A program made the position numbers and the translations under genes. Source: a virus. From it: a stretch of 60,478 bases of DNA. Location of the stretch: positions 1 to 60,478 of IMG/VR virus record IMGVR_UViG_3300010354_000096, one strand, 5' to 3'. Below the pieces are notes generated by a model. It searched no databases, was not told the DNA's origin, and saw only the letters and a list, made by a program, of their open reading frames with translations. Below, piece by piece: positions 11,791-60,478 of the stretch. How positions within the stretch are numbered: position 1 is the stretch's first letter; each line of letters starts with the position of its first letter.

Positions 11791-11851
11791 AAGATTTATA
11801 TAATAAAGATACTTCTTGGTTTCCTTAAATTACTGAAAATATATAAAAATG

Positions 11852-11861
11852 ATATTTATAT
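11852..11861 (+). promoter_or_regulatory. Candidate late-promoter box
   Basis: Exact ATATTTATAT in the 115-base gap, 44 bases before ATG 11906. The gap holds nothing else I can identify. It would drive the baseplate-wedge cluster (11906 onward). Confidence 0.5.
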
Positions 11862-11905
11862 TTTTAGAGAGGTTATTATTAAAAATTATTTGAGTAGGTA
11901 TTCAG

Positions 11906-20500: not shown

Positions 20501-22607
20501 TAACAATTCTGATGGACAAGTAGGTACTGATATTAATGTTGGTTCATCAGTAACTTCACCTGTTCAAGTTGGTACTGATACAGATTGGAGTATAACCGCT
20601 GCTGGCATAGCTCATGGAGTTGCATTAAAAACAAATACTACACTTTGGAGTTGGGGTAATAATGGTAATGGACAAGTTGGTGATAATACTACTATAAATC
20701 GTTCTTCACCTGTTCAAATTGGTTCATTAATAACTACAACAGTAGAATCTTATAAATCTGCTTCAATTTCAGACCAATACCTTTATGATGATGTTCCGCT
20801 AAATATTATGTTACAAAGAAGAGTATCAACTGATTTAACTTCTTCAAATCAAACATATGATTTTATTCTTAAAACTGGAAAATACGGTAAAATAGTAATA
20901 GAACAATCAGCAAGTATTGTTATAAGTGGAAGTGTGAGTGGTAGTTACAACAGAGCATGGTCTGATAATGGACAATTATATATTGGTTCTGGTTCAAATC
21001 CACAAACAAGTAATATACTTTCTGGTTCTATTTTTGAATTAAGATATTGGTCAACCATATTAAACACTTCTTCTTTTGATAATCATGTGTTAGCACCGAG
21101 GGCGTATAATTCTAATAACCCAACTGGTTCTTTCTATGATTTACAAGGACAATGGCAATTTTGGAAAAAGTTTGATTCTGCTGCTACTACCAGTTTTATA
21201 AGTAGTCATCCAGATCAAACAAAGAAAACATTTTATTCTTCTTCCAAAACAGCGTATCTGAATCAATTTAATAGTTCATCATTTGATTCTTCCCTTGAAA
21301 CGTATAATATGGAAGTTGCTACAATAGCAAATAATACACCATTTACTGAAAAAGTTAGAATAGATTCTGCTTCATTACAAGATACTTTACAGTTTGAAAA
21401 GTCGGTTACTGTAACTGAGTTTGATAAGTATTCAATTGACTCAAGTAAATTAATGGTTGCGTTTTCTCCACAGCATATAATAAATGAAGATATTTATGAA
21501 TCGATAGGTTATACTGCTTTGGATGATTATTTTGGTGGTTATGATTCTGTTAATTTAGAAGAATATCCAGACTTAAAGTTTCTAGCAAAAGAATATTGGA
21601 AAAAATATTCAAATAAAAATGATTTTACAGCGTATATCGATTTAATAGCAAAATTTGATTTTAGTATATTTGACCAAATACGTCAAGTTTTACCATTACG
21701 TGTAAATGAAATTTTAGGATTAGTAGTTGAGCCAAATATTTTAGAAAGATCTAAAGTAAGAACAACAAGAGATTTCGCAGCAGAAAAATCAGATAGTGTA
21801 GAAACAAATGATATTTCAACATTAGGTTCACCTGCATTAAAATTAAATAAAGTTAAATCAACTGTTACTATTGGGTTTGATGAAAATTATGATAGTGAAT
21901 TTTTAGAATACGGTGGTGAATTTGAAATTGGAAACACATTTGAAACGGAACTACATGATATTGAGGGTGAAAAGAATTTTAATTATTTAACTACTTCTAA
22001 TTTAAGTAAAACGAGTGGGAGTGTATTTATACCTAAAAAAACTTTTACGAATGAGCATAACAAATTAAAAACCTTTTTAACTGGTTCTAAAATAAAATCA
22101 TTCGTTGCTAATGTAAAAGGAGTTGATGCTAATGTTAATCTTAAACCAACAGTTTCAACAAAAGCGGTAGATGGGAAAACTACATTCTGGTATACACCTG
22201 ACATAGTTGGTACAATTTCAACAATACCAATTCCATCTGAGTACGTTAATACCACAACAACAATTACACCAAATGAAACTGAGCAAACTACAGGAACATT
22301 TGATCAAATTAATACTCCAATTAAAATTGGTGGACATTATCAAACACCTGAGCCAGTTTATTCTACCATGGAAGAGTATATAAACAATCAACCGAGTTCT
22401 TATATTTTTGTTGATACTGATTATGTTAATCCAGATGATTTAAGAACCGCTCAACAAAATTATATGTTTGCCGGTTGTAAACTTGAAGGTAATAGTGGCG
22501 AAGGAGTTAATGATGTAGCTTATCCAGCGGTAACACCAGATGGTGGTGCAATAGTTGAAGTGCTTTCAACTGACATTCTTGAAGATGTTCCGTTCATTAT
22601 AGAATAA
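17505..22607 (+). CDS. Large baseplate/tail protein carrying an inserted RCC1 propeller
   Basis: 1700 residues. The N-terminal 200 residues are beta-rich. The segment about 500-620 includes RRILNTLPYVYKSKGTSRS and IKALLSAYGIPSTI, resembling the conserved helix of P2 gpI-like tail proteins. From about 640 a lectin-like (LamG/concanavalin-type) domain begins (TLTFRWKMHN; LDWYVTIANDGTDYDKGSLT). It is interrupted after FHMRGED by seven RCC1 repeats (residues about 723-1078) and resumes with SDQYLYDDVPLNIMLQRRVS, then GQLYIGSGSN and FELRYWSTILNTSS. The last 500 residues hold helical and beta segments. By position and size it may occupy the place of gp7 or a similar wedge protein, but direct homology is not evident to me. 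Confidence 0.6.
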   Translation: MSNFNYTNIDSILSATNPIRGTRFKLTSIRRKLVVPVISDPEEQYFGRESSLELHVFLPNTTYVDNSSLYDVPFKIESRTERVTIGTSTETVTRKYVLIDVHDHIQNLLQLPPDNYKIVYNFFRNLIGGATDENGRLFIAEISQDRRELKLALKYPENTAAKTSLEQFVLSYLGSTRYLPSVVLNFGENLIVDVINVTNDGDNTYFYVKLYDALPPEIDLYYECWLGSQILKPWIDNVVVRSQEAIDKIPYIKGPNFEVDYDYWVNTETGYKSWNDLLSTNVQTSQEILNRYVNDTGSSVKLNVDYRDFANFVFYSSAEDRSANFFYKLGLIETYNTQLLLLDTYTGSVSANVVNVKNLRNKVEQGFDDFEKWLYYETTASNFYTSQSAATITPYPKYQVDPTSSDYHILTKEGKYKLYSVLSDTGIDWYNDLVDSGLEYDLKNYNSLQKAIPEYILDDGQSEQFRTFVNMIGQHFDILYLYTDHILKKNTRKENPKDGLSQDLVYETTKNLGWTLSSGTQTKDLWEYALGLSGSGEPIWTGKTTINKYLSKSEENRTKEVWRRILNTLPYVYKSKGTSRSIKALLSAYGIPSTILSIREYGGPDNADFGEIPRAEWDKQTYYLGFLGSKQQPKTNQYVQVPWEKVNNANSQWQYPDTLTFRWKMHNAKYYPYHDNKVQTILQKQSGSRLDWYVTIANDGTDYDKGSLTFHMRGEDVTTTGGWSKISAGFNHTSGVKSDGTLWTWGQNTHGQLGDNTVSHRSSPVQVGSDYNWSYVTTGDYYTIAIKTDGTLWAWGQNTYGELGQSDTVSRSSPVQIGTLANWSKVDGGNNHVLATKTDGTLWAWGFNGNGELGNSTTISRSSPVQIGTLSTWSSVTAGSNHGFAIKNDNTLWGWGRGAFGELGDNTTNNSSSPIQIGTSFSTVSAGGYYTLAVKTDGTLWGWGYNNKYQLGLANTTTYSSPVQIGTGYASVSAGPDSGGLNYATSLAVKTNGTLWGWGNNSDGQVGTDINVGSSVTSPVQVGTDTDWSITAAGIAHGVALKTNTTLWSWGNNGNGQVGDNTTINRSSPVQIGSLITTTVESYKSASISDQYLYDDVPLNIMLQRRVSTDLTSSNQTYDFILKTGKYGKIVIEQSASIVISGSVSGSYNRAWSDNGQLYIGSGSNPQTSNILSGSIFELRYWSTILNTSSFDNHVLAPRAYNSNNPTGSFYDLQGQWQFWKKFDSAATTSFISSHPDQTKKTFYSSSKTAYLNQFNSSSFDSSLETYNMEVATIANNTPFTEKVRIDSASLQDTLQFEKSVTVTEFDKYSIDSSKLMVAFSPQHIINEDIYESIGYTALDDYFGGYDSVNLEEYPDLKFLAKEYWKKYSNKNDFTAYIDLIAKFDFSIFDQIRQVLPLRVNEILGLVVEPNILERSKVRTTRDFAAEKSDSVETNDISTLGSPALKLNKVKSTVTIGFDENYDSEFLEYGGEFEIGNTFETELHDIEGEKNFNYLTTSNLSKTSGSVFIPKKTFTNEHNKLKTFLTGSKIKSFVANVKGVDANVNLKPTVSTKAVDGKTTFWYTPDIVGTISTIPIPSEYVNTTTTITPNETEQTTGTFDQINTPIKIGGHYQTPEPVYSTMEEYINNQPSSYIFVDTDYVNPDDLRTAQQNYMFAGCKLEGNSGEGVNDVAYPAVTPDGGAIVEVLSTDILEDVPFIIE
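19671..20738 (+). repeat. Seven RCC1 repeats inside the baseplate/tail gene
   Basis: Seven consecutive units of about 50 residues, each W-S-x-V-x-x-G ... KTDGTLWxWGxNxxGxLG ... SSPVQIG. Seven is the number of blades in an RCC1 beta-propeller, so this is one complete propeller. The units closely match those of the giant protein at 47597. Confidence 0.92.
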
Positions 22608-46103: not shown

Positions 46104-47588
46104 ATGCCACTAAGATTAAGACGAGGTACGGATTCAGCCAGAACAAGTATAACACCTGTTCAAGGTGAGCCCATATACACCACGGATACTAAAAAATTAT
46201 TTATAGGTGACGGAACAACTGCGGGTGGTGTTGAGGTTGGTGGAACACCCATAAGTTCATCTTATGCAACTACTGCATCTTATGTACTAAATTCTGTGAG
46301 TTCTTCATTTGCATCAACATCTGCAACCGCATCTTATGTTCTAAATTCTGCAACCGCATCTTATGTTCTGAACGCAGTAAGTTCTTCGTTTGCAACAACC
46401 TCAACAACGGCAACAACAGCATCTTATGTTTTACAAGCAGTAAGTTCATCATTTGCAACTAATTCGATGACTGCTTCATATTTTGGTGGAACTGTAACAT
46501 CAGCATCATTTGCTCAAACAGCATCTTATGTTCTTAATGCGGTTAGTTCATCTTTCTCTACAAATTCTATGACCGCTTCATACTACGGTGGAGGAGTAAC
46601 ATCAGCATCATTCGCAACAACTTCTGTAACCGCATCTTACGTATTGAACTCAGTTAGTTCTTCACGTGCAACAACAGCAGGGAGTGCATCAGTAGCAACT
46701 ACGGCATCTTACGCAACAACTGTTGAATTTCCACTAAATAACGTAGCGGGTGCTTCGGGATTAACAAGTTTCTTTATTAATCAAGACCTTAATCAGGATC
46801 CATCTGGTAACAGAAATATAACATGGGCTGATTTATTAACGGATATTGCAGGTACAAATTTAGCAAGTGATGGTGATTCTATTAATTTGAATACAACAAT
46901 TACAGGTTTAACTTCTGTAACTTCAACCTCATTTACTGGCTCATTACAAGGAACTGCAACTACTGCTTCATATTTTGGTGGAACAGTAACATCAGCGTCA
47001 TTCGCAACAACTTCTGCAACCGCATCATATGTTCTAAACGCAATTAGTTCATCATACGCATTAACAGCATCTTATGCAGCAAATGCAGGTGGTGGTGGAG
47101 CAACTGTAACTAATCCTGGAAATAATTATGTTATAACATCAGACGGCTCATCGGGTGGTTTAGTTGGTGAAAGTAATCTTCTATTTGACGGTACAAATAT
47201 GACGATTACCGGTAGTATTTATATGACTGGTTCTTTATATAGGCCTACGTTAGTTGATTGGGAAGAAAAATATAGCTCACCATCAATATCAGGTGGTTCT
47301 TTAACATTGGATTTATTACAAGGAAATGTTTTTAGTGTAACTATTGATGCTCTTGTAGCAACATTGAGTATAACAAATCCACCTGCTCTAAATAATGCAG
47401 GTAGTTTTGTTTTAATTACAACAGGTAATGGAAGTCCTTATCCATTTGTATGGTCAAACGCAGTAACTTGGTCAGGTGGTTCAGCACCAACTCTTTCAAG
47501 TGGAAGTGGAAAAAAAGATATTTATGGATTTATTTCGTTGAATCAAGGAACTAATTGGTATGGTTTTATTGGTGTTCAAAATGTTTGA
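46104..47588 (+). CDS. Tail fibre with Mtd-N-type start and TASY shaft
   Basis: 494 residues. The N-terminus PLRLRRGTDSARTSITPVQG, then TKKLFIGDGTTAGGVEVGG, is the widespread fibre N-terminal module (as in Mtd-type and hyaluronidase-type fibres). Residues about 50-210 and 285-330 are TASY-type repeats. The C-terminal 110 residues form a beta domain, SFVLITTGNGSPYPFVWSN, VTWSGGSAPTLSSGSG, ending WYGFIGVQNV, a common fibre tip of unknown ligand. The stop is eight bases before the RCC1 giant. Confidence 0.72.
   Translation: MPLRLRRGTDSARTSITPVQGEPIYTTDTKKLFIGDGTTAGGVEVGGTPISSSYATTASYVLNSVSSSFASTSATASYVLNSATASYVLNAVSSSFATTSTTATTASYVLQAVSSSFATNSMTASYFGGTVTSASFAQTASYVLNAVSSSFSTNSMTASYYGGGVTSASFATTSVTASYVLNSVSSSRATTAGSASVATTASYATTVEFPLNNVAGASGLTSFFINQDLNQDPSGNRNITWADLLTDIAGTNLASDGDSINLNTTITGLTSVTSTSFTGSLQGTATTASYFGGTVTSASFATTSATASYVLNAISSSYALTASYAANAGGGGATVTNPGNNYVITSDGSSGGLVGESNLLFDGTNMTITGSIYMTGSLYRPTLVDWEEKYSSPSISGGSLTLDLLQGNVFSVTIDALVATLSITNPPALNNAGSFVLITTGNGSPYPFVWSNAVTWSGGSAPTLSSGSGKKDIYGFISLNQGTNWYGFIGVQNV
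46246..47085 (+). repeat. TASY-type shaft repeats (second array)
   Basis: Repeats coding for TASYVLNSVSSSFATTS-like units, dense at 46255-46710 and again at about 46960-47085. Very similar to the array in the fibre at 41773. Confidence 0.75.
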
Positions 47589-47596
47589 GGTTAAAA

Positions 47597-50500
47597 ATGA
47601 TTAAAAATGTTTTACTACACGTTTCAAGATCTTATACTCCTTATGTAAAATCAAGGTTAATATATGGAAACGGTCTTGCTAGTTATGGTGAATTGGATAA
47701 TGATACGCTTTTATATACTATGAATCAAGTAGATGGTAATGCAACAACTGTATCTGCCAGTATTACAAGTCATACTACCAACGCTGCTTTATTTGTTAAA
47801 TCTAATAATTCATTATGGGGATTTGGTGGCCAACCTTCATACGAGTTGGGTGATGGTACAACCACTACTCGCTCATCTCCTGTTCAAATAGGAACACTTA
47901 CCAATTGGAAATCGGTATCAGTTGGGTATTCACATACAATAGCAGTTAAAACAGATGGTACTCTTTGGAATTGGGGACATTCTTCTTCTTTATCAAGTTT
48001 ACCAATTATTTTACGCAGCTCACCGATTCAAGTAGGTGGTGACACTAATTGGACATTTGCTACGGCAGGTGACAGTTATTCAATGGCAATTAAAACCGAT
48101 GGTACTCTTTGGGGTTGGGGTAGTAATGCGTCTGGTTCATTAGGAAATGGTCAATCTGCATTTACATTTGGTAAAGTAGTATATGGAGATAGTTATGTAT
48201 CTGCTTCTGCTGGTGAATCCCATACCCTTGCTATTAAATCTGATGGAACATTGTGGGGATTTGGCGATGATAGTAGTGGTAGATTGGGTCAAGTACAATC
48301 ATCTAATTTTTTTAATAAAGTATCTATGCCGTATGGTACAATAGTATCAGCATCTGCAACCTGGGCAACATTGTCAGGAAACAATATTTTTGTTATTGCA
48401 ATAAATTCTGATGGAACAATGTGGGGTTGGGGAGCTAATGGAAATTATAACTTAGGAGATGGTACTATTACAAATAAATCACTACCGATTCAAATAACCA
48501 CAAGTAATAAATGGACAGACGTTAAAACTGGAAATTCACATACTATTGCAATACAATCAGACGGTACGCTATGGGGTTGGGGTACTAATAATGGAGGTAA
48601 ATTAGGTGACGGAACAACTACTACTCGTTCTTTACCAGTGCAAATTCCAGGTACAAGTAATTGGACTAAAATAGCAGTTGGAGGAGATAATAGTAATGCT
48701 ATTCGTTCCGATGGTACACTATGGGGATGGGGTGCAAACAATGTTGGACAAATAGGTGATGGTACAGTTGTGTCACGTTCATCACCTGTTCAAATAGGTA
48801 CATTAACTGACTGGTCAAAGGTAGATGCAGGACTTTCACATACAATGGCAATTAAAACCGATGGTACACTATGGGGTTGGGGATTAAATACAAGTGGACA
48901 ATTAGGTGATACTTCATTAGTTAATCGTTCAAGTCCAGTTCAGATTGGTACTCTTACTAATTGGAGTAAAGTGTATGGTGGCTCTTCTTGGACGATGGCA
49001 ATAAAAACTGATGGTACACTATGGGGTTGGGGTGGTAATGCAGACGGTAATTTAGGCGATGATACATCGGTTTCACGTTCTTCACCTGTTCAAATAGGTA
49101 CTCTAACTAATTGGGCAAATGTTTCTACTCGTGGTTATGTATTTACTATTGCAACAAAGACCGACGGTACTCTTTGGGCGTGGGGAAATGATTCAAATAG
49201 CTATTATTTAGTTGGTAATATGTTTTCTGTTACTCGCTCGTCACCCGTTCAGTTGGGTACATTGACAAATTGGACAAATGTTTTTGGTGGACAAGCCATT
49301 TCTTTACCTTTAAGTTCGGACGGTTTATATGCAGTAGCAGGTAGTAATTTTTTAGGTACTGGTTATAAAGTTACAATACTTAACGTTAGTTCACCTGTAC
49401 AAATTGGAGATAATAAAAATTGGCGAAATGTTTCAACAACAAGATTGTCTGTTCTTGCTTTAAAAACCAATGGTACATTATGGGCATGGGGTAGTAATAC
49501 AGCTGGTATTTTAGGAACTAATAATACAACCCAATATACTTCGCCAGTTCAAGTGGGCACACTCACAAATTGGAACTTTGTATCTAATGGGTATTCACAT
49601 ACAATGGCAATTAAAACCGATGGTACACTATGGGGTTGGGGTAGTAATTTTAGAGGAAATATCGGTGATGGTCAATCGTATGGTAGTATAAATAAAATTA
49701 ATGTTCAAATAGTAACTCCAACTGAATATGATACGAGCACTAACCATACGTTAGTTGTTAGAAACGATTATACACTATGGGCATGGGGATTAAATACAAC
49801 TGGTCAATTAGGTGATAATTCATTTATTGCTCGTTCAAGTCCAATTCAAATTGGAACTGATACTAATTGGTCAACTGTTTCTACTGGCGGTGGATTTTCT
49901 CATGGTATTAGAACAGACGGTACACTTTGGAGTTGGGGTACTGGTGGATCTGGTGTACTTGGTGATGGGACTGTTGTTGCTAAACTCTCTCCTGTTCAAA
50001 TTGGCACATTAACTAATTGGAGTAAAGTATCAAGCAACACAAACAATTCATTTGCAATAAAAACAGATGGTACACTTTGGGCGTGGGGATTTAATGGAAG
50101 TGGTTATACATTAGGATTATTTACTGATACCGCTAATCGTTCAAGTCCAACACAAGTTGGAACTGGTAACACATGGTCATCTGTATCTGCTGGTCTTTCA
50201 CACGGTATGGCGATTAAGTCCGATAACACACTATGGGGTTGGGGTTTTAATAGTAATGGACAAATAGGTGATAATAGTGTCAGTACAAGATTTTCTCCAA
50301 TTCAAATAGGTACATTAACTAACTGGGCATCAGTAGCATCTGGTCAATCACATACTATGGCGGTAAAGACTGACGGTACACTATGGGGATGGGGAATTAA
50401 TAACCTTGGACAAGTAGGTGATACTACTACTGTGTCACGTTCAAGTCCAGTTCAAATTGGGACATTAACTAATTGGTCAAAGGTTGCAGCTGGTACAAAT

Positions 50501-53500
50501 GTCACACACGCTGTTAAAACTGATGGTACATTATGGGCATGGGGTGATGGTTCTTCTTATACATTTGGTGCAGGTAATGCTATATCTACATCACGTTCAT
50601 CACCAGTTCAAGTTGGTGTTCTTACAAATTGGACAAATGTAAAAAATACACGAGATCACGTTGTAGCTATTAATAATAATGAATTATATGAAGCAGGTAA
50701 TAATATAACAGGTTGGTCATCCGATAAATCATCACCAGTTCAAGTTGGAAGTGGTAATGATTGGACGTATGTAGATGCTGGTAATGATTACACTATGGCT
50801 GTAAAATCGAATGGTACATTATGGGCATGGGGCTTAAATACGGATGGTAATTTGGGCGATGGTACAATTCTTCCAAAAGATTCACCTGTTCAAATTGGAA
50901 CTCTAACTAATTGGGCAAAAGTTTCAACAGGAAGATTACTTAACAGAGGAACTCTTGCTTTAAAAACCGATGGAACTCTATGGGCATGGGGGCAAGCTGC
51001 TTCTGGACAATTAGGCACAAATAATCTAACCTCATATTCTTCACCAGTTCAAATTGGTACACTTACAAATTGGTCTAATATTAGTATGGGTTATGGGTGG
51101 GCTTTTGCAACAAAAAATGACGGTACTTTATGGGGCTGGGGGCAGAATTCTATTGGAGAATTAGGAAATGGATTACCAACTGCAGTTTCATCACCTGTTC
51201 AAATAGGGGGTGCAACAAATTGGTCATTTGCTTATGCTGGTGTTAATTTACATAGTATTGCTGTGAAAACAAATGGAGAACTGTATAGTACAGGTGCAAA
51301 CAATAACAATTTACTGTTACTTGGCCGTTCAACTACACAAGAAGTAATTCCAATTAAAATTGGAACTGATACAAATTGGTCAAAGGTGTATGCAGGACAA
51401 TGGGATACATTTGGTATTAAAACCGATGGAACTCTATGGGCTTGGGGTAAAAATTCTGGTGGTAAATTGGGATTGGGTGATACGACTTCAAGAAATTCAC
51501 CAGTTCAAGTTGGAACTGATACTTGGTTGAAAGTTGTAAACGCTATAAGTCATACAGTTGGTTTAAAATCGGATAATAGTCTTTATGTGTGGGGTACTGA
51601 TAATCAAGGGTCTCTTGGTAGAGGTGCTGTTAATTTAACTCGTTTTACTCCAATAGATGAAGCAGGGTGGTCTGACATAACTGCAGGTGGTTTATCATAT
51701 ACAATGGGTATTAAAACTAATGGTACACTATGGGCTTGGGGTGGTAACAATAGTTCAGGCCAATTAGGTACAAATAACACAACCACATATGCTTCACCTG
51801 TTCAAATTGGAACTCTAACTAATTGGTCAAAGGTTGTAGCTGGACAGCAACACACAACTGCAATAAAAACAGATGGTACACTATGGGGTTGGGGTTGGAA
51901 TTCAACCGGACAAGTAGGTGATAATACTACTGTGACACGTTCAAGTCCAGTTCAAATTGGAACAGATACAAATTGGGCAACAGTTGATACATACGAAAGT
52001 AGTACAATGGCTATTAAAACCAATTGGACACTATGGGGTTGGGGATTAAATACAAGTGGACAATTAGGTGATACTTCATTAGTTAATCGTTCAAGTCCAG
52101 TTCAGATTGGTACTCTTACTAATTGGTCAACTGTTTCTGTTGGCGCAAATGGCGGAGTAGCGGTTAAAACAGATGGTACTTTGTGGAGTTGGGGGAGTGG
52201 TTTATATGGTGCATTAGGTGATAATACAACTGCTGATAAATCTTCGCCTGTTCAAATTGGAACTCTAACCAACTGGGCTAGTTGTGCACGAGCAACATAT
52301 TCTTCATTAGCAGTTAAAACCGATGGTACACTATGGGCATGGGGTATGAATTGGAATGCCCAACTTGGTATTGATCAACATTACAACGCATTTGGTGAGG
52401 TGTCAGGTACTACTCAAGTAACTGCTGCATCAACTGGTGAAGGAACTGCAAGTCATTATATAAAAACAGACGGTACGCTATGGGGTTGGGGAGTAAATAA
52501 TGGTAATGGTGTAGTTGGTGATAATACAAATGCTACTAAATCATCTCCAGTACAAATCGGTACAGATAATACATGGTCAAAAATAAAAGAAAATGCTCAT
52601 GTCATGGCGTTAAAAACCAATGGAACTCTTTGGAGTTGGGGTTATAACGGTAATGGAGAACTTGGACAAAATGATAAGGCAGCTCGTTCAAGTCCAGTTC
52701 AAGTTGGTACTGATATGAATTGGTATGATTTTGCTGTTGGTAGTGGCGGTGTTACGTTAGCGGTTAAAACCGATGGTACTCTTTGGAGTTGGGGTTATAA
52801 TTTTAATGGACAACTTGGACAGAATGATACAATATCTCGTTCAAGTCCAGTTCAAATAGGTACTTTAACTAATTGGAGTAAGGTTGCAACCGGTGGTAAT
52901 ATGGGTTTTGCAATAAAAACCGATGGTACACTATGGGGTTGGGGAATAAATAGTTCAGGTCAATTAGGTGATAATTCATTAATTGCTCGTTCATCGCCTG
53001 TTCAAATAGGTACATTAACTAATTGGTCATCGATTGCGGCAGGAGCAGGAACACATACCATTGCTGTAAAAACCGATGGAACTCTATGGACATGGGGACA
53101 AGGTACTTCTGGTCAATTAGGTAATGGTATTGATACAAATAATAGATCATTTCCAGTTCAAGTTGGTTTTGATACTAATTGGTCAAAAGTTTCTGCTGGT
53201 AACGCTTCTAGCTTTGCTATAAAGACAGACGGTAGTCTTTGGAGTTGGGGAAACTATATTCAAGTAGTAGGCGCAGCGTCTTCAAATCGCTCCTCACCTG
53301 TTCAAATTGGTGGCTCAAGTGATTGGTTAGAAATAATAGCAACAACTGATGGTAGTTCATATAATCAACCATTTTTAGCAATTAATACTTCTAATAAATT
53401 ATATACCGCAAGTGGAAATAATTTTTATGATTATGCATTACTGCGACCAATAACACGTTCAAGTCCAGTTCAGGTTGGAACTTTAACTAATTGGTCTGGT

Positions 53501-56110
53501 GTTGATATTGTAAACCATACAGTAGGTCTTAGTGGGTATAGCACGATTGCTTATAAAACAGATGGTACATTATGGGCATGGGGTGATAATCAAGTATATC
53601 ATCTTGGTACAGGAGAATCTACAACTGCATATAGGTCATCACCTGTGCAAATATCAAATGTATCAAACATTAATAAACTTAGTATTAATAAAACACATTC
53701 TTTAGCAAAGAATACTGCTGGTATTGTTTACTATACTGGTACTCAAGATTTAATAATTCGTGGTAATGTTACACCAAAATCCTCACCTGTTCAACTTTCA
53801 TCTGAGAGTTGGTCTGATATATCAGTATCGAATGCAAATTCTATGGCTGTAAAATCTAATGGTACACTATGGGGTTGGGGATTGAATCAAACATACGGTA
53901 CACTTGGTATTGATGGTGATGCAACTACGAATCGTTCAAGTCCAGTTCAAGTTGGTACTAAAACAAATTGGCGTATTGCAGGTAGTGGTTATCAATTTTC
54001 AATTGGAGTTGATAATTCTAATAATTTATTTAGTACAAATTATGGTGCTGTACTTATAAAATCGTCACCAATACAAATAACATCTGCTGTAAATTGGAGT
54101 TCATTGTCAGCGGGAAATTCATTCACTATGGGTGTAAAAACCGATGGTACGCTATGGGGTTGGGGACAAAATAATATAGGTCAATTAGGTGACAATACAG
54201 TCATACCACGTTCAAGTCCAATTCAAATAGGTACTCTAACTAATTGGTCAAAGGTTACTGCGGCACAATCACAAACCATAGCAGTTAAAACCGATGGTAC
54301 ACTATGGGCATGGGGATATAATGGACTTGGGGCTTTAGGAACTGGCAATACAACAAATCGTTCAAGTCCAGTTCAGATTGGTACTCTTACTAATTGGTCT
54401 GGTATATGGACTATGTGGGATTCAAGTTTTGCAATAAAAACAGATGGTACTTTATGGTCATGGGGTTATAATGGTTTTGGACAGTTAGGAACTGGTAATA
54501 CACTTGGACTTTCCTCTCCAGTTCAAGTTGGTACATTAACTAATTGGTCAAAGGTGTTTAACGGTCAATCATCACAAACCATGGCAATAAAAACCGATGG
54601 AACTCTGTGGGGTTGGGGTTATAATCTTTATGGTATGGTTGGTGATGGAACAACTACTAATCGTTCAAGTCCAGTTCAAATCGGTACTCTTACTACTTGG
54701 TCAGGTCTTGTAACAGGAAATAATCTTACAGTTGCCGTTAAAACTGATGGTACTCTTTGGAATTGGGGTGTTGGTGGAGTTTTTGGTAATGCAAAACTAA
54801 GTACAGCAAGGTCAAACCTTATGCAATTAAGTGAAAGGAATTGGCAATCAGTAGCTGCTTCAGGTGGTCATGTAATTGCTTTAGCAACCGATGGTACACT
54901 ATGGAGTTGGGGAAGTGTTAATAATGCTGGACAACTTGGACACGGTGAGTTAGTAATTAAGTCCGCTCCATTCCAAATTGGATTTCTTAATACATGGGCA
55001 AGTGTTGCTGCTGGTAATGGTATTAGTGGTGCAATAAAAACTGATGGTACATTGTGGACATGGGGACAGAATGGGTATGGTGGATTAGGAACTAATAACA
55101 CAGCGCTTCGTTCAAGTCCAGTTCAGATTGGTACTGATACTAATTGGTCTAAAATTTCTATGAGTGAATATGATACTATAGCAGTTAAAACCAATGGTAC
55201 TCTGTGGGCTTGGGGTTATAATTTTTATGGAGAATTAGGTGACGGAACAGCCGTGAGTAGATCATCACCAGTTCAAATTGGTACTGATACTAATTGGTAT
55301 GATGTTGCTACTGGTGTTTATTTTACTCTTGCAACAAAAACCGATGGTACTCTGTGGGCATGGGGATTAAATACTGCAGGTCAATTAGGACAGAATAATA
55401 CGGTAACTGCACGTTCAAGTCCAGTTCAAATTGGAACTCTGACTAATTGGTCAAAGATTACAGGTGGTACGTATAACGCCATGGCAATAAAAACCGATGG
55501 AACTCTTTGGGGTTGGGGTTATGGTGATTCTGGTAGATTGGGTACTAATGATACAATTAGTCGTTCCTCACCGGTTCAAATAGGTACTTTAACTAATTGG
55601 TCAAGTGTTTCTGCAGCAGTAACAAATCAAGTTCATGCTATTAAAACAGATGGTACACTATGGGCGTGGGGTATTAATACGAATGGTGCTTACGGTAACG
55701 GTGATACAATAACTCGTTCAAGTCCAGTTCAAATCGGTACTTTAACTAATTGGACTACAGTTTCTTCTGCTACGTCAAACGTAATGGTAATAAATTCAAG
55801 TTACAAAATGTACTCAGCTGGTGCAAACAATGGAAACTTGGGTTATTGGATTTATGACGGTAATAATAGGTCTTCTCCTATACAAGTTGGAGCTGATGCA
55901 AATTGGACAAGTGCTATGAGTGGTTTTAGTGGTGCTGATATTATAAGAACAGACGGTACACTATGGTCATGGGGTAATAACAATTTTTATGGACAAATAG
56001 GTGATGGGACTACAGTAAACAAATCATCACCAGTACAGGTTGGCTCACTTACTTTTTGGAAAACAATAAGTACAGGATATAATCACAGAGTGGGAATAGT
56101 TGAATATTAA
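47597..56110 (+). CDS. Giant RCC1-repeat protein, probable tail adhesin
   Basis: 2837 residues from ATG 47597, which has GAGG seven bases upstream; a longer frame from 47555 lies inside the previous gene and is rejected. After some 20 residues the whole chain is RCC1 units of about 50 residues: W-x-x-V-x-x-G-x-x-H-x-x-A-I-KTDGTLWGWGxNxxGQLGDxT-x-x-x-RSSPVQIGTLTN. By eye I count 55 whole units, plus a half-unit at the N-terminus (IYGNGLASYGELDND) and the complementary half at the C-terminus (WKTISTGYNHRVGIVEY), which makes 56 blades, or eight seven-bladed propellers. At least seven units are degenerate (for example ELYEAGNNI, KLYTASGNN). There is no signal peptide or membrane segment. The position at the end of the fibre cassette suggests a virion adhesin; binding partner unknown. 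Confidence 0.82.
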   Translation: MIKNVLLHVSRSYTPYVKSRLIYGNGLASYGELDNDTLLYTMNQVDGNATTVSASITSHTTNAALFVKSNNSLWGFGGQPSYELGDGTTTTRSSPVQIGTLTNWKSVSVGYSHTIAVKTDGTLWNWGHSSSLSSLPIILRSSPIQVGGDTNWTFATAGDSYSMAIKTDGTLWGWGSNASGSLGNGQSAFTFGKVVYGDSYVSASAGESHTLAIKSDGTLWGFGDDSSGRLGQVQSSNFFNKVSMPYGTIVSASATWATLSGNNIFVIAINSDGTMWGWGANGNYNLGDGTITNKSLPIQITTSNKWTDVKTGNSHTIAIQSDGTLWGWGTNNGGKLGDGTTTTRSLPVQIPGTSNWTKIAVGGDNSNAIRSDGTLWGWGANNVGQIGDGTVVSRSSPVQIGTLTDWSKVDAGLSHTMAIKTDGTLWGWGLNTSGQLGDTSLVNRSSPVQIGTLTNWSKVYGGSSWTMAIKTDGTLWGWGGNADGNLGDDTSVSRSSPVQIGTLTNWANVSTRGYVFTIATKTDGTLWAWGNDSNSYYLVGNMFSVTRSSPVQLGTLTNWTNVFGGQAISLPLSSDGLYAVAGSNFLGTGYKVTILNVSSPVQIGDNKNWRNVSTTRLSVLALKTNGTLWAWGSNTAGILGTNNTTQYTSPVQVGTLTNWNFVSNGYSHTMAIKTDGTLWGWGSNFRGNIGDGQSYGSINKINVQIVTPTEYDTSTNHTLVVRNDYTLWAWGLNTTGQLGDNSFIARSSPIQIGTDTNWSTVSTGGGFSHGIRTDGTLWSWGTGGSGVLGDGTVVAKLSPVQIGTLTNWSKVSSNTNNSFAIKTDGTLWAWGFNGSGYTLGLFTDTANRSSPTQVGTGNTWSSVSAGLSHGMAIKSDNTLWGWGFNSNGQIGDNSVSTRFSPIQIGTLTNWASVASGQSHTMAVKTDGTLWGWGINNLGQVGDTTTVSRSSPVQIGTLTNWSKVAAGTNVTHAVKTDGTLWAWGDGSSYTFGAGNAISTSRSSPVQVGVLTNWTNVKNTRDHVVAINNNELYEAGNNITGWSSDKSSPVQVGSGNDWTYVDAGNDYTMAVKSNGTLWAWGLNTDGNLGDGTILPKDSPVQIGTLTNWAKVSTGRLLNRGTLALKTDGTLWAWGQAASGQLGTNNLTSYSSPVQIGTLTNWSNISMGYGWAFATKNDGTLWGWGQNSIGELGNGLPTAVSSPVQIGGATNWSFAYAGVNLHSIAVKTNGELYSTGANNNNLLLLGRSTTQEVIPIKIGTDTNWSKVYAGQWDTFGIKTDGTLWAWGKNSGGKLGLGDTTSRNSPVQVGTDTWLKVVNAISHTVGLKSDNSLYVWGTDNQGSLGRGAVNLTRFTPIDEAGWSDITAGGLSYTMGIKTNGTLWAWGGNNSSGQLGTNNTTTYASPVQIGTLTNWSKVVAGQQHTTAIKTDGTLWGWGWNSTGQVGDNTTVTRSSPVQIGTDTNWATVDTYESSTMAIKTNWTLWGWGLNTSGQLGDTSLVNRSSPVQIGTLTNWSTVSVGANGGVAVKTDGTLWSWGSGLYGALGDNTTADKSSPVQIGTLTNWASCARATYSSLAVKTDGTLWAWGMNWNAQLGIDQHYNAFGEVSGTTQVTAASTGEGTASHYIKTDGTLWGWGVNNGNGVVGDNTNATKSSPVQIGTDNTWSKIKENAHVMALKTNGTLWSWGYNGNGELGQNDKAARSSPVQVGTDMNWYDFAVGSGGVTLAVKTDGTLWSWGYNFNGQLGQNDTISRSSPVQIGTLTNWSKVATGGNMGFAIKTDGTLWGWGINSSGQLGDNSLIARSSPVQIGTLTNWSSIAAGAGTHTIAVKTDGTLWTWGQGTSGQLGNGIDTNNRSFPVQVGFDTNWSKVSAGNASSFAIKTDGSLWSWGNYIQVVGAASSNRSSPVQIGGSSDWLEIIATTDGSSYNQPFLAINTSNKLYTASGNNFYDYALLRPITRSSPVQVGTLTNWSGVDIVNHTVGLSGYSTIAYKTDGTLWAWGDNQVYHLGTGESTTAYRSSPVQISNVSNINKLSINKTHSLAKNTAGIVYYTGTQDLIIRGNVTPKSSPVQLSSESWSDISVSNANSMAVKSNGTLWGWGLNQTYGTLGIDGDATTNRSSPVQVGTKTNWRIAGSGYQFSIGVDNSNNLFSTNYGAVLIKSSPIQITSAVNWSSLSAGNSFTMGVKTDGTLWGWGQNNIGQLGDNTVIPRSSPIQIGTLTNWSKVTAAQSQTIAVKTDGTLWAWGYNGLGALGTGNTTNRSSPVQIGTLTNWSGIWTMWDSSFAIKTDGTLWSWGYNGFGQLGTGNTLGLSSPVQVGTLTNWSKVFNGQSSQTMAIKTDGTLWGWGYNLYGMVGDGTTTNRSSPVQIGTLTTWSGLVTGNNLTVAVKTDGTLWNWGVGGVFGNAKLSTARSNLMQLSERNWQSVAASGGHVIALATDGTLWSWGSVNNAGQLGHGELVIKSAPFQIGFLNTWASVAAGNGISGAIKTDGTLWTWGQNGYGGLGTNNTALRSSPVQIGTDTNWSKISMSEYDTIAVKTNGTLWAWGYNFYGELGDGTAVSRSSPVQIGTDTNWYDVATGVYFTLATKTDGTLWAWGLNTAGQLGQNNTVTARSSPVQIGTLTNWSKITGGTYNAMAIKTDGTLWGWGYGDSGRLGTNDTISRSSPVQIGTLTNWSSVSAAVTNQVHAIKTDGTLWAWGINTNGAYGNGDTITRSSPVQIGTLTNWTTVSSATSNVMVINSSYKMYSAGANNGNLGYWIYDGNNRSSPIQVGADANWTSAMSGFSGADIIRTDGTLWSWGNNNFYGQIGDGTTVNKSSPVQVGSLTFWKTISTGYNHRVGIVEY
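48866..48964 (+). repeat. 99-base exact duplicate, copy 1
   Basis: Identical to 52028-52126 over 99 bases by direct comparison, within the RCC1 gene. It covers two-thirds of a blade (from TLWGWGLNTSGQLGD to the next NW). The flanks differ on both sides. Confidence 0.9.
52028..52126 (+). repeat. 99-base exact duplicate, copy 2
   Basis: Second copy of 48866-48964. Just before it the usual KTDGTLW reads KTNWTLW, as if the junction of a conversion or duplication fell there. Confidence 0.9.
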
Positions 56111-56191: not shown

Positions 56192-57196
56192 ATGAGTAAA
56201 AAGGCTATGCATCCATTGGATTTGGCATTGGAAGCATCTATTAATGGTAATCCAGAAATTAGTGAAGACATTCTGAGAAATCAACCACAGAATGATACAC
56301 GAGTTTTATTCAATTTGGGTTGGCATGAAATGCGAAAAGGCAATATGAAGAAAGCGTTTGAACATTTCAACTACGGTAGATACATAAATGTGTTTGGTCT
56401 TCCTGCTTTACCAGGAAAAATTTGGAAAGATGAAGATTTGACTAATAAAACACTTCTTTTTAGATGCGAAGGTGGATATGGCGATCAAATTCTTAACTTT
56501 CGTTTTGCTAAACGATTTGAAGAGATGGGTGCAAAGGTATTAGTTTCATGTGCTCCAGAATTAAAAGAGTTATTTTCAAGACATGGATTTATTTGTGTTG
56601 ATAATGAAGTAGTTATGGGTTGCCACTATGATTATTGGATTCCTGCAATGTCCGCTGCCTATGTTTTAGATATGGAGTATGAGGATTTAGATGGAAAACC
56701 TTTTTTATTTACGAAAGAAAAAAGAAATTTATTTTCTAAGAAAGGAAATTTGAAAGTTGGTATTCGTTGGAGTGGTTCACCTGAGTTTGAAGATGAACAA
56801 CATAGAAGATTTAATCCAGAATTAATGATAGACTTACATGATGTTCCAAATACAACATTTTATTCTTTACAAAGAGATGAAAATTGTGTAGATGGACTTC
56901 CATTTGGCGATATGCGTGATCAAATGAAAACATGGGACGATACTGCTTCTATTATTGCGGGATGTGATGTAATAATTACTTCATGTACTTCAATCGCACA
57001 CCTTTCCGCTGCTATGGGAGTTCCAACTTGGATAGTTACACCGATTATGCCTTACTACACATGGGTAGTACCAGGTGATACTTCACGATGGTATGACTCA
57101 GTAAGATTATTCAGACAAGAAAAATATGGAGAATGGGAAGCACCATTCGCTAAAATCAGAGAAGAACTCACTAAATTAGCGGAAAACCACAAATGA
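56192..57196 (+). CDS. TPR-glycosyltransferase (GT9/heptosyltransferase-like)
   Basis: 334 residues. Residues 1-65 resemble a short TPR-like helical region (VLFNLGWHEMRKGNMKKAFE). The C-terminal half has the GT-B, glycosyltransferase family 9-like pattern: KVGIRWSGSPEFEDEQHR at about 188-206 and a nucleotide-sugar-binding segment DVIITSCTSIAHLSAAMGVP near 260-280. The N-terminal domain has RCEGGYGDQILNFRFAKRF (phosphate-loop-like). It would transfer a sugar from an activated donor; the acceptor could be virion fibres or host glycan. Its ATG follows AAAAAAAGG. It overlaps the next gene by four bases (ATGA). Confidence 0.72.
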   Translation: MSKKAMHPLDLALEASINGNPEISEDILRNQPQNDTRVLFNLGWHEMRKGNMKKAFEHFNYGRYINVFGLPALPGKIWKDEDLTNKTLLFRCEGGYGDQILNFRFAKRFEEMGAKVLVSCAPELKELFSRHGFICVDNEVVMGCHYDYWIPAMSAAYVLDMEYEDLDGKPFLFTKEKRNLFSKKGNLKVGIRWSGSPEFEDEQHRRFNPELMIDLHDVPNTTFYSLQRDENCVDGLPFGDMRDQMKTWDDTASIIAGCDVIITSCTSIAHLSAAMGVPTWIVTPIMPYYTWVVPGDTSRWYDSVRLFRQEKYGEWEAPFAKIREELTKLAENHK

Positions 57197-57771
57197 TGCC
57201 ACATTATTATCACTACATACATGGATGGTTTGTCCAAGAGAATGTATACACTCAGATGGTTGATTCTTGCAATGATACAGATAATTACCATTTTGTTGAA
57301 ATAGGTAGTTGGAAAGGAAGAAGTTCTTGCTTTATGGGTGTAGAAATACTAAATAGCGGTAAAAAAATTAAATTCGATTGTGTTGATACGTGGTTAGGTT
57401 CAGAAGAACATACAAATCCTAAATCTTCACACTATGAACCACTTCTTGAAATACCAGACGGACTTTACAATGAATTTATACATAACATTGAACCTATTAA
57501 TAAGGTTGTTAATCCGATAAGAATGACTTCGGTAGAAGCATCTAAACTATATGAAGATGAAAGTTTAGATTTTGTTTATATAGATGGTGCACACGATTAT
57601 GTTAGTGTGAAGCAAGATATTGAACATTGGTATCCGAAAGTAAAAAAAGGTGGTTATATTGCTGGCGATGATTTTGATATTTGGGCAGGTGTTCCTGCTG
57701 CGGTAAGAGAATGTTTTGGAAATGATTTTAATATAATAAGAGGTATAACATGGTTGAAAAAGAAAATTTAA
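57193..57771 (+). CDS. Class I SAM-dependent methyltransferase (Methyltransf_24-like)
   Basis: 192 residues. SAM-binding motif I is FVEIGSWKGRSSCFMG (about residues 35-50), with an acidic residue after strand 2 (KFDCVDTW) and the motif-IV-like segment LDFVYIDGAHDYVSVKQDI (about 127-145), followed by KKGGYIAGDDFD. These are typical of the small methyltransferases found with sugar-modifying genes. Start overlaps the glycosyltransferase stop; its end overlaps the next gene by 22 bases. It probably methylates the sugar or protein target of the flanking transferases. Confidence 0.78.
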   Translation: MMPHYYHYIHGWFVQENVYTQMVDSCNDTDNYHFVEIGSWKGRSSCFMGVEILNSGKKIKFDCVDTWLGSEEHTNPKSSHYEPLLEIPDGLYNEFIHNIEPINKVVNPIRMTSVEASKLYEDESLDFVYIDGAHDYVSVKQDIEHWYPKVKKGGYIAGDDFDIWAGVPAAVRECFGNDFNIIRGITWLKKKI

Positions 57772-58538
57772 GTGTTGATATTATATTAAGAACACATGAT
57801 TTTATAGATATTCACGCTTCTCCAAGTGGTAGATATTGTGGAACTGATAAAACAACTCTTATTTGTAAATGTGTAAAGTCCTTAGTGAAGTCAGCAAACA
57901 ATTACGATGGTAAAGTTAGATTTATTTGGCTTGATGACCATTCTTCACAATCAACCATTGATAAATTACACGTTATATTTTCAGAATCAAAACATGAAGT
58001 TGAATTTGTTCCGTTGGAATTACGTGGATGGAACGCTTCTGGTTATGAACAATTTGAAAGAGGAAGGGCTTCAGATGCAGATTTAGTTTATTTTGTGGAA
58101 GATGATTATTTACATTTTCCAACAGCAATAGAAGAAATGGTTGATGGGTATAGAGAGTTTAAAGAAAATCTTGGTTTAGAAGTTGCAATTCACCCGTTTG
58201 ATGATCCAGATAACTACTTACCACAATATATTGCGCCATGTAGAGTTGTTTTGGGTAAGAACAGAAGATTTAGAACAAATGAATATAGTACATTTGTATT
58301 TTTATGTTCACCTGAATTAATTAGAAAACATTGGAGTAGATTTTATACACTCGCAACAGAATATATGACTGAGTGGGGTGAGCACAATAAAATCCATGAA
58401 GGAACAACTATTAACCATATTTGGCGGTGGGAAGCAAAATTATTTACGCCAATACCATCACTTGCACTTCACATGGGCTTTGAAGAACAAAAAGACAAGT
58501 ACATTGATTGGGAAGAACTATGGAAATCGGTAGGTTAA
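57750..58538 (+). CDS. GT-A fold glycosyltransferase
   Basis: 262 residues. VDIILRTHDF (strand 1) and RFIWLDDHSSQSTIDKL (about 52-68) match the nucleotide-binding half of a GT2-type fold. VYFVEDDYLHFPTAIEEM (about 112-129) contains the acidic metal-binding motif (EDD in place of DxD). The C-terminal part includes THIGEGT-like KIHEGTTINHIW and a conserved-looking LALHMGFEEQ. It completes the glycosyltransferase-methyltransferase-glycosyltransferase unit. Donor and acceptor are not deducible. Confidence 0.68.
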   Translation: MVEKENLSVDIILRTHDFIDIHASPSGRYCGTDKTTLICKCVKSLVKSANNYDGKVRFIWLDDHSSQSTIDKLHVIFSESKHEVEFVPLELRGWNASGYEQFERGRASDADLVYFVEDDYLHFPTAIEEMVDGYREFKENLGLEVAIHPFDDPDNYLPQYIAPCRVVLGKNRRFRTNEYSTFVFLCSPELIRKHWSRFYTLATEYMTEWGEHNKIHEGTTINHIWRWEAKLFTPIPSLALHMGFEEQKDKYIDWEELWKSVG

Positions 58539-58583: not shown

Positions 58584-59075
58584 ATGCATTATGTACACGT
58601 AGAAAACGGTGAAATAAAAGGATTTCCAATGCCGTTGCCTAAATCTTGGGGTAATATATCAAACTTTGATTTACTCGATGACCAGTCATTACGTCAGTAC
58701 GGTTGGTATAAATACACATTTATTCCTGCACAACAAACTGAAACAAATTATACAGATGGTTCAACTGTTGTAATAACTGAAGAAGGTGTAATTGAATATC
58801 AACTTCTTAAAGAAAAAACCGAAGAACAAATTCAAAAAGAAATAGAAAGCCGTTGGGAAAATATTCGTTCTCAAAGAAATGTGTATTTGTTAGAGTCCGA
58901 TTGGACACAACTCGAAGATTCTCCATTATTAGCACAAGAAAAAGAAGAATGGAGAGTATATCGTCAAGCTTTGAGAGATATAACAAATTTTGCAACACCA
59001 GACGAAGTTGTATGGCCAACAAAACCATCTAATGAATTAAGAACTTCGGTACAACCGAATGGAGAAGTTTCTTGA
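58584..59075 (+). CDS. Tail-fibre assembly chaperone (Phage_tail_APC-like)
   Basis: 163 residues. The N-terminus MHYVHVENGEIKGFPMPLPK is the small beta module of fibre assembly proteins. The C-terminal half carries the family block: RSQRNVYLLESDWTQLEDSP, then EEWRVYRQALRDITNFATPD and VVWPTKP (about residues 92-155). Such proteins help fold or trimerise the fibre and are often encoded at the end of the fibre cluster. Its client could be any of the five large adhesins upstream. The stop overlaps the next TTG start by three bases, with a shared GGAG at 59061. Confidence 0.78.
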   Translation: MHYVHVENGEIKGFPMPLPKSWGNISNFDLLDDQSLRQYGWYKYTFIPAQQTETNYTDGSTVVITEEGVIEYQLLKEKTEEQIQKEIESRWENIRSQRNVYLLESDWTQLEDSPLLAQEKEEWRVYRQALRDITNFATPDEVVWPTKPSNELRTSVQPNGEVS

Positions 59076-60478
59076 AAAATAAAGTATTACAACTTATAAA
59101 AGAAATGAATCTTGCTATCTTCAATGAAAATGATTTGATAGATAAGCAGATTATTGTTTTATATCCAGGTACTTTTAATCCAATGGCTTTGCACCATAAA
59201 GAAGAATATGATAGATTGTGCCGTAAGTTTGGTTCAGATAATGTATACATTGTTACCGATGATATGCAAGATGCTATAAGAAAACCACTTACGTTTGCAG
59301 AAAAAAATGCTATAATGAAGCGTCATAATGTGAAGAATGTTATTAAAACAACAAATCCGTATAACCCACTCGAATTGTTGGAAGACTTCGATCCAACGCA
59401 TACCGTGGTTATATATGCCGTTGGGAAAGATAATATCGGTAAGTTAAATCAATTCAAACGGTTAACTAAGTATAATAAAGCATCTAATTTACCGTACAAA
59501 GATATTCAGAATCCTTATTTATATTATACAATTACAAATCATGTTGTTTATAATATACCTAGCTTTGGTCAAATGAATCAGGAAAATATTCAAAAGGCAT
59601 TGGGTGATAGAACAGCTAAATTAACAGAATTAAAATCTCGTTTTATTTCTATTTTTGGTTGGTTTGATGCTCAGATTTTTAATACAGTTATTGCAAGAAT
59701 GAATATAAAACGTGGTGAAATGATTGAAGTGAAAAAGAAAAAAGAAGGTGAGTTAAGACCACTTCACATGATAACAAGAAAGTTTTGGGATAAAGTATTT
59801 GAATCTGTTATAACAGAAGAAATAATAGCTTATCACAGAAGTTCAAAAAATTTTCATAAGTTTGATATATCAAATGTTAGTGTTGATAGTAATAAACAAA
59901 GGTATGGATATGGGCTTTATTTTTCTGATAATATACCACATAATCAGTACGGTGATTACTTATATAAAGTAAAACTTTTTAAAGATAAAAAAGATTATGT
60001 TTTGATAGATATGAAGAGTCCAGTTGAAGAAAATATAGTTAATAAAATTGTAGAAGCGTTAGATAGGTTGAATAAAAAATCTGATGAAGTTATTGAATTT
60101 GCATATAGTGGTTATCTTTTTTATAAAACGTTATCAAGAATTTTAGGTGGTGATAAATACGCTTCTTTATTTTTATTTAATAATGGCGTTGATGGTTTAA
60201 AAAATAGGATAAGTAATAATTGGAATGATTATATATTATTTAATGATGATTCTATAAATATTGAAGATATTAAATATGACAAAGTATTTGAAAATGTTAT
60301 AACAGAAGAAATAGAACAAATAAATGAAGTAGCAACATTACCAACTGGTTTATTGAAAGAAATAGAACCAGTTGCCGTAGAACTTTTTAAGGAAATTGCT
60401 GATTTAATACGATTAGATTCAAGTTTTCTTGGATTTAAGCGTATTTTGCTTCCTAGAGTAAAATCTGGATTTGAACAT
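59072..60478 (+). CDS. Nucleotidyltransferase fused to an ADP-ribosyltransferase-like domain (3' end outside window)
   Basis: The frame is open for 469 codons from TTG 59072 (GGAG eight bases upstream) to the last base, so the C-terminus is missing. Residues 25-165 resemble the cytidylyltransferase/NMNAT superfamily: VLYPGTFNPMALHHKEEYDR is the nucleotide-binding strand and a variant of the (T/H)xGH loop, with HTVVIYAVGKDN near 110-121. Residues 250-400 resemble the ADP-ribosyltransferase found in polyvalent phage proteins: AYHRSSKNFHKFD, QRYGYGLYFSDN, YGDYLYKVKL and NNGVDGL...WNDYILFNDDSINI. The 12-residue motif DKVFE[SN]VITEEI flanks this domain on both sides (240-251 and 403-414). I infer an enzyme packaged or made early for host takeover, analogous to T4 Alt; the ligand and activity are not shown. 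Confidence 0.65.
   Translation, partial: MKNKVLQLIKEMNLAIFNENDLIDKQIIVLYPGTFNPMALHHKEEYDRLCRKFGSDNVYIVTDDMQDAIRKPLTFAEKNAIMKRHNVKNVIKTTNPYNPLELLEDFDPTHTVVIYAVGKDNIGKLNQFKRLTKYNKASNLPYKDIQNPYLYYTITNHVVYNIPSFGQMNQENIQKALGDRTAKLTELKSRFISIFGWFDAQIFNTVIARMNIKRGEMIEVKKKKEGELRPLHMITRKFWDKVFESVITEEIIAYHRSSKNFHKFDISNVSVDSNKQRYGYGLYFSDNIPHNQYGDYLYKVKLFKDKKDYVLIDMKSPVEENIVNKIVEALDRLNKKSDEVIEFAYSGYLFYKTLSRILGGDKYASLFLFNNGVDGLKNRISNNWNDYILFNDDSINIEDIKYDKVFENVITEEIEQINEVATLPTGLLKEIEPVAVELFKEIADLIRLDSSFLGFKRILLPRVKSGFEH
59789..59824 (+). repeat. 36-base direct repeat, copy 1 (before the ART-like domain)
   Basis: Encodes DKVFESVITEEI. Matches 60278-60313 at 33 of 36 bases. Confidence 0.85.
60278..60313 (+). 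repeat. 36-base direct repeat, copy 2 (after the ART-like domain)
   Basis: Encodes DKVFENVITEEI. Both copies contain I-T-E, fitting the (L/I)-x-E cleavage rule of the T4 prohead protease. Confidence 0.85.

What the first reader, a model, noticed from the sequence alone, without database searches (positions are those of the whole stretch)
59072..60478. Single-chain nucleotidyltransferase + ADP-ribosyltransferase-like enzyme
The sequence shows an N-terminal nucleotidyltransferase-type domain (PGTFNPMALHH) joined in one frame to a domain with the layout of polyvalent-protein ADP-ribosyltransferases (YHRSSKNFHKFD ... YGYGLYFSDN ... YGDYLYKVKL). If the first domain makes or exchanges NAD or a related dinucleotide and the second uses it, one phage protein would couple cofactor supply to target modification. 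T4 Alt/ModA show that ADP-ribosylation is a known phage takeover route; the fusion is what looks new.
Basis: partly seen in the sequence, partly recalled or inferred. Interest (0 to 1): 0.85.

Follow-up and report, generated by a model that had tools for sequence, protein, structure and literature searches.

The report
Modular phage head-injected effector polyprotein
What looked like one phage enzyme that makes and uses NAD is more likely a chain of exchangeable parts (a nucleotidyltransferase-like front piece with a degraded active site, an ADP-ribosyltransferase and, in relatives, a zinc peptidase) joined by short repeated signals resembling those T4-type phages use to load proteins into the head and cut them apart there.

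Summary
The ORF is real (59072-60478, TTG start) but is cut off by the contig end. Relatives give the full protein (~759 aa): nucleotidyltransferase (NT)-like domain, ADP-ribosyltransferase (ART), HExxH zincin. The ART fold is supported by an AlphaFold2 model (pLDDT 86) whose best matches are phage PolyVal ARTs, a cyanophage ejection protein, AcrIF11 and tankyrases. The NMNAT reading fails: (H/T)xGH is absent in all 78 homologs with the site readable, and the SSTxxR arginine is not conserved. The 163-codon ART module is flanked exactly by 36-bp direct repeats encoding DKVFE(S/N)VITEE, which has the spacing of T4's capsid-targeting/processing peptide (hydrophobic-x-x-hydrophobic-I-x-E). ORFs that continue past this point have (I/L)xE in 18/18 cases; ORFs that stop there, 0/63. 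In relatives the gene leads into terminase, portal, gp21-type prohead protease and capsid genes. Architectures vary: NT alone, NT+zincin, NT+ART, NT+ART+zincin; a Microcystis phage has NT+ligase-like. The same ART also exists as its own gene with a targeting-like N-terminus. Best explanation: a head-packaged, prohead-protease-processed polyvalent effector with swappable cassettes. Packaging and cleavage are inferred, not shown. New variant of a known kind.

The parts
59072..60478 (+). polyprotein ORF, 469 of about 759 codons; the 3' end lies beyond the contig
   Evidence: full length from relatives
59081..59104 (+). N-terminal capsid-targeting-like peptide KVLQLIKE (res. 4-11)
   Evidence: (L/F)(I/L)xE present in 79/79 homologs with a readable N-terminus; T4 rule
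59141..59776 (+). nucleotidyltransferase-like domain (res. 24-235)
   Evidence: PF01467 15.2 bits (cut-off 21), phrog_395 E 0.002; Mel-JY01 homolog 21.1 bits; weak Foldseek matches to NadD/FAD synthetase/CoaD
59162..59197 (+). degenerate HxGH region YPGTFNPMALHH (res. 31-42)
59573..59602 (+). degenerate SSTxxR region MNQENIQKAL (res. 168-177)
59789..59824 (+). direct repeat copy 1, DKVFESVITEEI; putative targeting peptide and (I/L)xE cut site
59819..60277 (+). ADP-ribosyltransferase module (H255, Y283; D386 candidate)
   Evidence: model pLDDT 85.7, fold matches, alignment
60278..60313 (+). direct repeat copy 2, DKVFENVITEEI
60314..60478 (+). start of the zincin module (with a further site INE at 60320-60328), truncated by the contig end
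   Evidence: 100% identical to L006 over the 53 aa compared; HELIH is present in the relatives

Best explanation
The gene encodes a modular, head-packaged effector precursor of a T4-like phage. The N-terminal KVLQLIKE peptide and the repeated KVFE(S/N)VITE peptides work like T4 capsid-targeting sequences: they draw the precursor into the prohead core, and the phage's gp21-type protease cuts after (L/I)xE, releasing the NT-like piece, the ART and the zincin as separate head-internal proteins that enter the host with the DNA. The ART then ADP-ribosylates host targets early in infection (an Alt-like role by a PolyVal-type ART); the zincin acts on proteins. The near-identical 36-bp repeats also let cassettes be gained, lost or swapped. 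Shown: the ORF, the domains, the ART fold, the repeats, exact presence/absence of the ART module, the protease gene in relatives, the site pattern. Inferred: packaging, cleavage, injection, catalysis, targets.
For: (I/L)xE at the joint in 18/18 ORFs that continue and 0/63 that end there. Same spacing as the T4 CTS (positions 4, 7 targeting; 8, 10 processing). Peptidase_S77 (gp21-type) in 4 relative records at E 1e-30 to 1e-32. Syntenic position before TerL, portal, protease and capsid genes in relatives and in the isolate Mel-JY01. MCP has a conserved (L/I)xE near residue 60. 74%-identical ART as a separate gene with a CTS-like N-terminus (L039). N-terminal motif in 15/193 ORFs of relative G001 against 2.4 in shuffles (maximum 8 of 2000), including ART-PolyVal-like proteins, a SAM lyase and a zeta-toxin-like kinase. 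Exact ART-less and zincin-less forms and module-wise mosaicism. The Mel-JY01 homolog has IIAE|GG between the NT-like and ligase-like parts. ART fold.
Against: No virion or cleavage data. (L/I)xE is a short, low-information motif and the 18 loci are not independent. N-terminal motif enrichment is not clear in Mel-JY01 (6/219 against 2.4-2.9). The window contig itself holds no head genes. L009 ends right after the second repeat with no cargo behind it. The zincin could do the cutting instead.
Confidence: 0.62

Rival explanations
1. A polyvalent protein in the strict sense: packaged and injected as one uncut multidomain chain, or cut by its own zincin. The repeated linkers are only recombination scars or spacers.
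For: ART plus zincin in one chain is the commonest polyvalent theme, and auto-processing by the zincin is proposed there (PMC5512222). The 36-bp repeats are almost identical at the DNA level, as expected for recombination joints.
Against: The joint acquires (I/L)xE only where cargo follows (18/18 against 0/63); the N-terminus and a separate ART gene carry the same kind of peptide; a gp21-type protease is present in relatives; NT+ART without zincin exists (L009).
Confidence: 0.25
2. A late intracellular enzyme that is not packaged, acting on host or phage proteins during assembly.
For: The gene lies in the late structural region; no virion data exist.
Against: CTS-like N-terminus conserved in 79/79; similar ARTs are virion ejection proteins and about 44% of phage ARTs lie in contexts that suggest packaging (PMC9503650).
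Confidence: 0.07
3. One reading: the NT domain makes NAD or a dinucleotide that the ART in the same chain uses.
For: NT-like domain and ART in one frame; weak fold similarity to NadD; the Mel-JY01 homolog keeps SGTxxR.
Against: (H/T)xGH absent in 78/78 and SSTxxR Arg not conserved; 63 of 81 NT homologs stand alone, others carry zincin without ART, and Mel-JY01 a ligase-like domain.
Confidence: 0.03

Closest known systems
Phage polyvalent proteins with HYD-type ART and zincin domains (Iyer et al. 2017, PMC5512222)
   Same: ART with H in strand 1 and Y in strand 2, a zincin and a further domain in one chain of a phage structural region; ART fold matches PolyVal ARTs
   Different: Short, repeated CTS-like peptides at the joints, a degenerate nucleotidyltransferase front domain, and exact module gain or loss between 36-bp repeats; that paper proposes zincin or assemblin processing, not gp21-type sites
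T4 Alt and internal proteins IPI-III with capsid-targeting sequences (PMC9026906)
   Same: h-x-x-h-(I/L)-x-E peptide, gp21-type protease, ART delivered early
   Different: T4 CTS peptides are N-terminal and single-cargo (Alt is also trimmed at its C-terminus); here they also sit between domains. ART is H-Y type, not R-S-E. Packaging not shown here
NMNAT/NadM/NadR nucleotidylyltransferases of phages (PMC9503650)
   Same: Nucleotidylyltransferase superfamily fold, weakly supported
   Different: No (H/T)xGH, no conserved SSTxxR, no Nudix or kinase partner
Microcystis phage Mel-JY01 'cytidylyltransferase like protein' WWT39297.1
   Same: Syntenic NT-like domain (45% identity) with a CTS-like N-terminus and further cargo behind
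   Different: Cargo is ligase-like (TEKLDGLNLF, by eye), no ART; SGTxxR intact

Membership tests
ART-PolyVal / Tox-ART-HYD2 ADP-ribosyltransferase | ART fold | tested here: met
   model pLDDT 85.7; BFVD best match PolyVal ART E 7.9e-14, TM 0.73; PDB matches mostly ARTs
ART-PolyVal / Tox-ART-HYD2 ADP-ribosyltransferase | H in strand 1 and Y in strand 2 | tested here: met
   H255 and Y283 invariant in 13 aligned ARTs, in model strands 6-12 and 37-40
ART-PolyVal / Tox-ART-HYD2 ADP-ribosyltransferase | D in strand 5 | tested here: inconclusive
   D386 lies in model strand 139-144 and is kept in close relatives; distant rows have N, E or D
ART-PolyVal / Tox-ART-HYD2 ADP-ribosyltransferase | Pfam PF18760 gathering score | tested here: not met
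   no PF18760 match for the window protein; distant homologs L042 and L105 reach the cut-off
Polyvalent protein | several effector-type domains including ART and zincin in one chain, in a phage structural gene region | tested here: met
   in full-length relatives; the window is truncated before HELIH
Polyvalent protein | delivered into the host by the virion | not testable with these tools
   no virion proteomics
T4-type CTS-bearing head internal protein | N-terminal hydrophobic-x-x-hydrophobic-(I/L)-x-E peptide | tested here: met
   79/79 readable homologs
T4-type CTS-bearing head internal protein | gp21-type (S77) prohead protease in the same phage | tested here: met
   4 of 5 relative records; window fragment does not cover the region
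T4-type CTS-bearing head internal protein | found in heads, cut after (L/I)xE | not testable with these tools
   needs mass spectrometry
NMNAT / nucleotidylyltransferase enzyme | (H/T)xGH motif | tested here: not met
   absent in 78/78
NMNAT / nucleotidylyltransferase enzyme | SSTxxR motif | tested here: not met
   Arg replaced in most homologs; intact only in Mel-JY01
NMNAT / nucleotidylyltransferase enzyme | fold | tested here: inconclusive
   low-confidence model, best match NadD E 0.027
T4 Alt/ModA family | R-S-E active site | tested here: not met
   H255/Y283 configuration instead
Zincin metallopeptidase | HExxH and a conserved downstream helix | tested here: met
   HELxH and SDxxEIGAHA kept at 27% identity in relatives; not present in the truncated window

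The most novel reading that the evidence does not exclude
T4-like phages use internal CTS-like repeats as a combined loading tag, protease site and recombination joint, so that different effectors (ART, zincin, ligase) can be plugged in behind a worn-out nucleotidyltransferase carrier, packaged as one chain in fixed ratio, then cut apart in the head: a polyprotein cargo system for phage effectors.
Probability: 0.4. Interest if true: 0.75.

Novelty: new variant of a known kind. Interest (0 to 1): 0.55.

Why it matters
Head-injected effectors are found mostly by similarity to known toxins. A short signal that marks, loads and separates cargo would allow effector repertoires of large phages to be read from sequence (relative G001 already shows a set: ART-like proteins, a SAM lyase, a zeta-toxin-like kinase), and it would make the question of how such cargo is loaded and exchanged directly testable.

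Tried and rejected
NAD coupling (motifs absent). Membership in the R-S-E Alt family (H-Y instead). Chance ORF (conserved in many contigs). Assembly artefact of the fusion (same architecture in several contigs from different samples, plus precise ART-less and zincin-less forms). Full-length AlphaFold2 model: poor (pLDDT 53.5), used only as a weak hint for the NT fold. The genome-contig scan found no cellular homolog. PDB profile searches gave no significant hits for NT or zincin, and only E about 0.02 to cholix toxin for the ART. Three paper searches for a published effector polyprotein cut at CTS-like sites found none in the held library; most subscription papers are not covered. The N-terminal motif enrichment seen in G001 was not clearly reproduced in Mel-JY01.

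Full report
Observation. The window is a 60,478-base virus record from a large T4-like phage; this stretch carries tail, baseplate and fibre genes. The ORF 59072-60478 runs off its end. Fifteen IMG/VR loci encode relatives, and several hold the missing 3' end: the full product is about 759 aa.

Anatomy. Residues 1-240 are a nucleotidyltransferase-like (NT) domain, about 250-402 an ADP-ribosyltransferase (ART), and, in relatives, about 417-759 a domain with TIAHELIHYVQ and a downstream SDTMEIGAHAEEF, i.e. a zincin. These zincin residues persist in a 27%-identical homolog. The ART is flanked by two 36-bp direct repeats, 59789-59824 and 60278-60313, 92% identical and 489 nt apart. In L012 one repeat and the ART are missing exactly (596 against 759 aa, a difference of 163 codons).

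ART. An alignment-based AlphaFold2 model of the module is confident (pLDDT 85.7). In the PDB the best matches are a cyanophage A4 pre-ejectosome protein, the diphtheria toxin catalytic domain, the anti-CRISPR protein 6kyf (AcrIF11, an ADP-ribosyltransferase; this from my own knowledge) and tankyrases; among viral models, PolyVal ARTs. H255 and Y283 are invariant and sit in strands 1 and 2; D386 is the candidate third residue in a later strand. This matches the H-Y-D layout given for polyvalent-protein ARTs (PMC5512222), but distant relatives vary at the third position. It is not of the R-S-E type of T4 Alt.

NT domain. Pfam, PHROGs and the low-confidence full-length model point to the nucleotidylyltransferase superfamily. 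The (H/T)xGH motif is replaced in all 78 homologs with the site readable, and the SSTxxR arginine is not kept. The isolate Mel-JY01 keeps SGTxxR, so an active ancestor is plausible. In 63 of 81 homologs the NT domain is the whole protein and most end in KVYNEIIK. Hence it is not a dedicated ART cofactor supplier; a binding or carrier role is more likely (inference).

Joints. KVFESVITE has the spacing of the T4 capsid-targeting sequence, in which positions 4 and 7 target and 8 and 10 govern processing, gp21 cutting after L/I-X-E (PMC9026906; the peptide itself from my own knowledge). The (I/L)xE site occurs in 18 of 18 ORFs that run on past this point and in none of 63 that stop there. The protein's own N-terminus has the pattern in 79 of 79 readable cases. 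Relatives encode a gp21-type Peptidase_S77 protease at high significance, and in them the gene is followed by small genes, terminase, portal, protease and capsid genes, in the same order in Mel-JY01. The major capsid protein has an (L/I)xE site near residue 60 in G001 and Mel-JY01, where T4 gp23 loses a 65-residue propeptide.

Wider pattern. A 74%-identical ART exists as a separate 180-aa gene with a CTS-like start in L039. In the 177-kb relative G001, 15 of 193 ORFs start with the motif against 2.4 expected from shuffles, including ART-PolyVal-like proteins, and a SAM lyase and a zeta-toxin-like kinase over Pfam cut-offs. The enrichment is not clear in Mel-JY01 (6 of 219). Modules have separate histories: the window against L006 is 66% identical in NT but 98% in ART; against L004, 95% and 72%. 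In Mel-JY01 the NT-like domain is followed by IIAE-GG and a ligase-like domain (the ligase call is by eye).

Mechanism. The most economical reading is a head-packaged precursor, drawn in by CTS-like peptides, cut by the prohead protease into separate effectors, and injected. Shown: domains, ART fold, repeats, exact cassette loss, site pattern, protease gene in relatives. Inferred: packaging, cleavage, injection, catalysis and targets. The main rival is an uncut or self-processing polyvalent protein whose linkers are only recombination scars.

Verdict. This is a new variant of a known kind (polyvalent / Alt-like head effectors), with a testable idea about how effector cassettes are loaded and swapped.

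Noticed in passing
G001 (L021-L030), e.g. 11367-11873, 21865-22494, 129412-130200, 146011-148767, 156055-156702: Many ORFs begin with MIKLKDLLKE-like peptides: ART-PolyVal-like proteins, a PARP-like protein, a SAM lyase, a zeta-toxin-like kinase, a HAD-like protein. Looks like a set of head-targeted effectors.
   Followed up: partly
L039:4862-8342 (-): Array of short ORFs made almost wholly of NQVWNQV/DQVSNQV-type repeats, next to the stand-alone ART gene; nature unknown.
   Followed up: no
window 47555-56110 (+), also inside 17505-22607: 2851-aa fibre-region ORF made of dozens of RCC1-like repeats (SSPVQIGTLTNWSxVxxGxxHTxAIKTDGTLWxWG); copy number differs in relatives.
   Followed up: no
window 2590-4905, 4919-7087, 15904-17490 (+): Three neighbouring tail-region proteins end in the same leucine-rich-like domain (FDCSGNxLxSLxGGP).
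   Followed up: no
window 56192-58538 (+): Three sugar- or methyl-transferase-like genes between the fibre and the polyprotein; this cassette differs between relatives (e.g. L008 against L003).
   Followed up: no
G001:151427-154228 (+): ORF resembling a Bacteroidota TonB-dependent receptor inside a phage contig that also carries GroEL/GroES-like genes (158276-160248).
   Followed up: no
G001:69751-70764 (-): Head-module protein with an N-terminal EEIIREE peptide and a C-terminal stretch resembling R-S-E type ARTs (VLYRTVEN...STSLNP); Pfam gives no match.
   Followed up: partly
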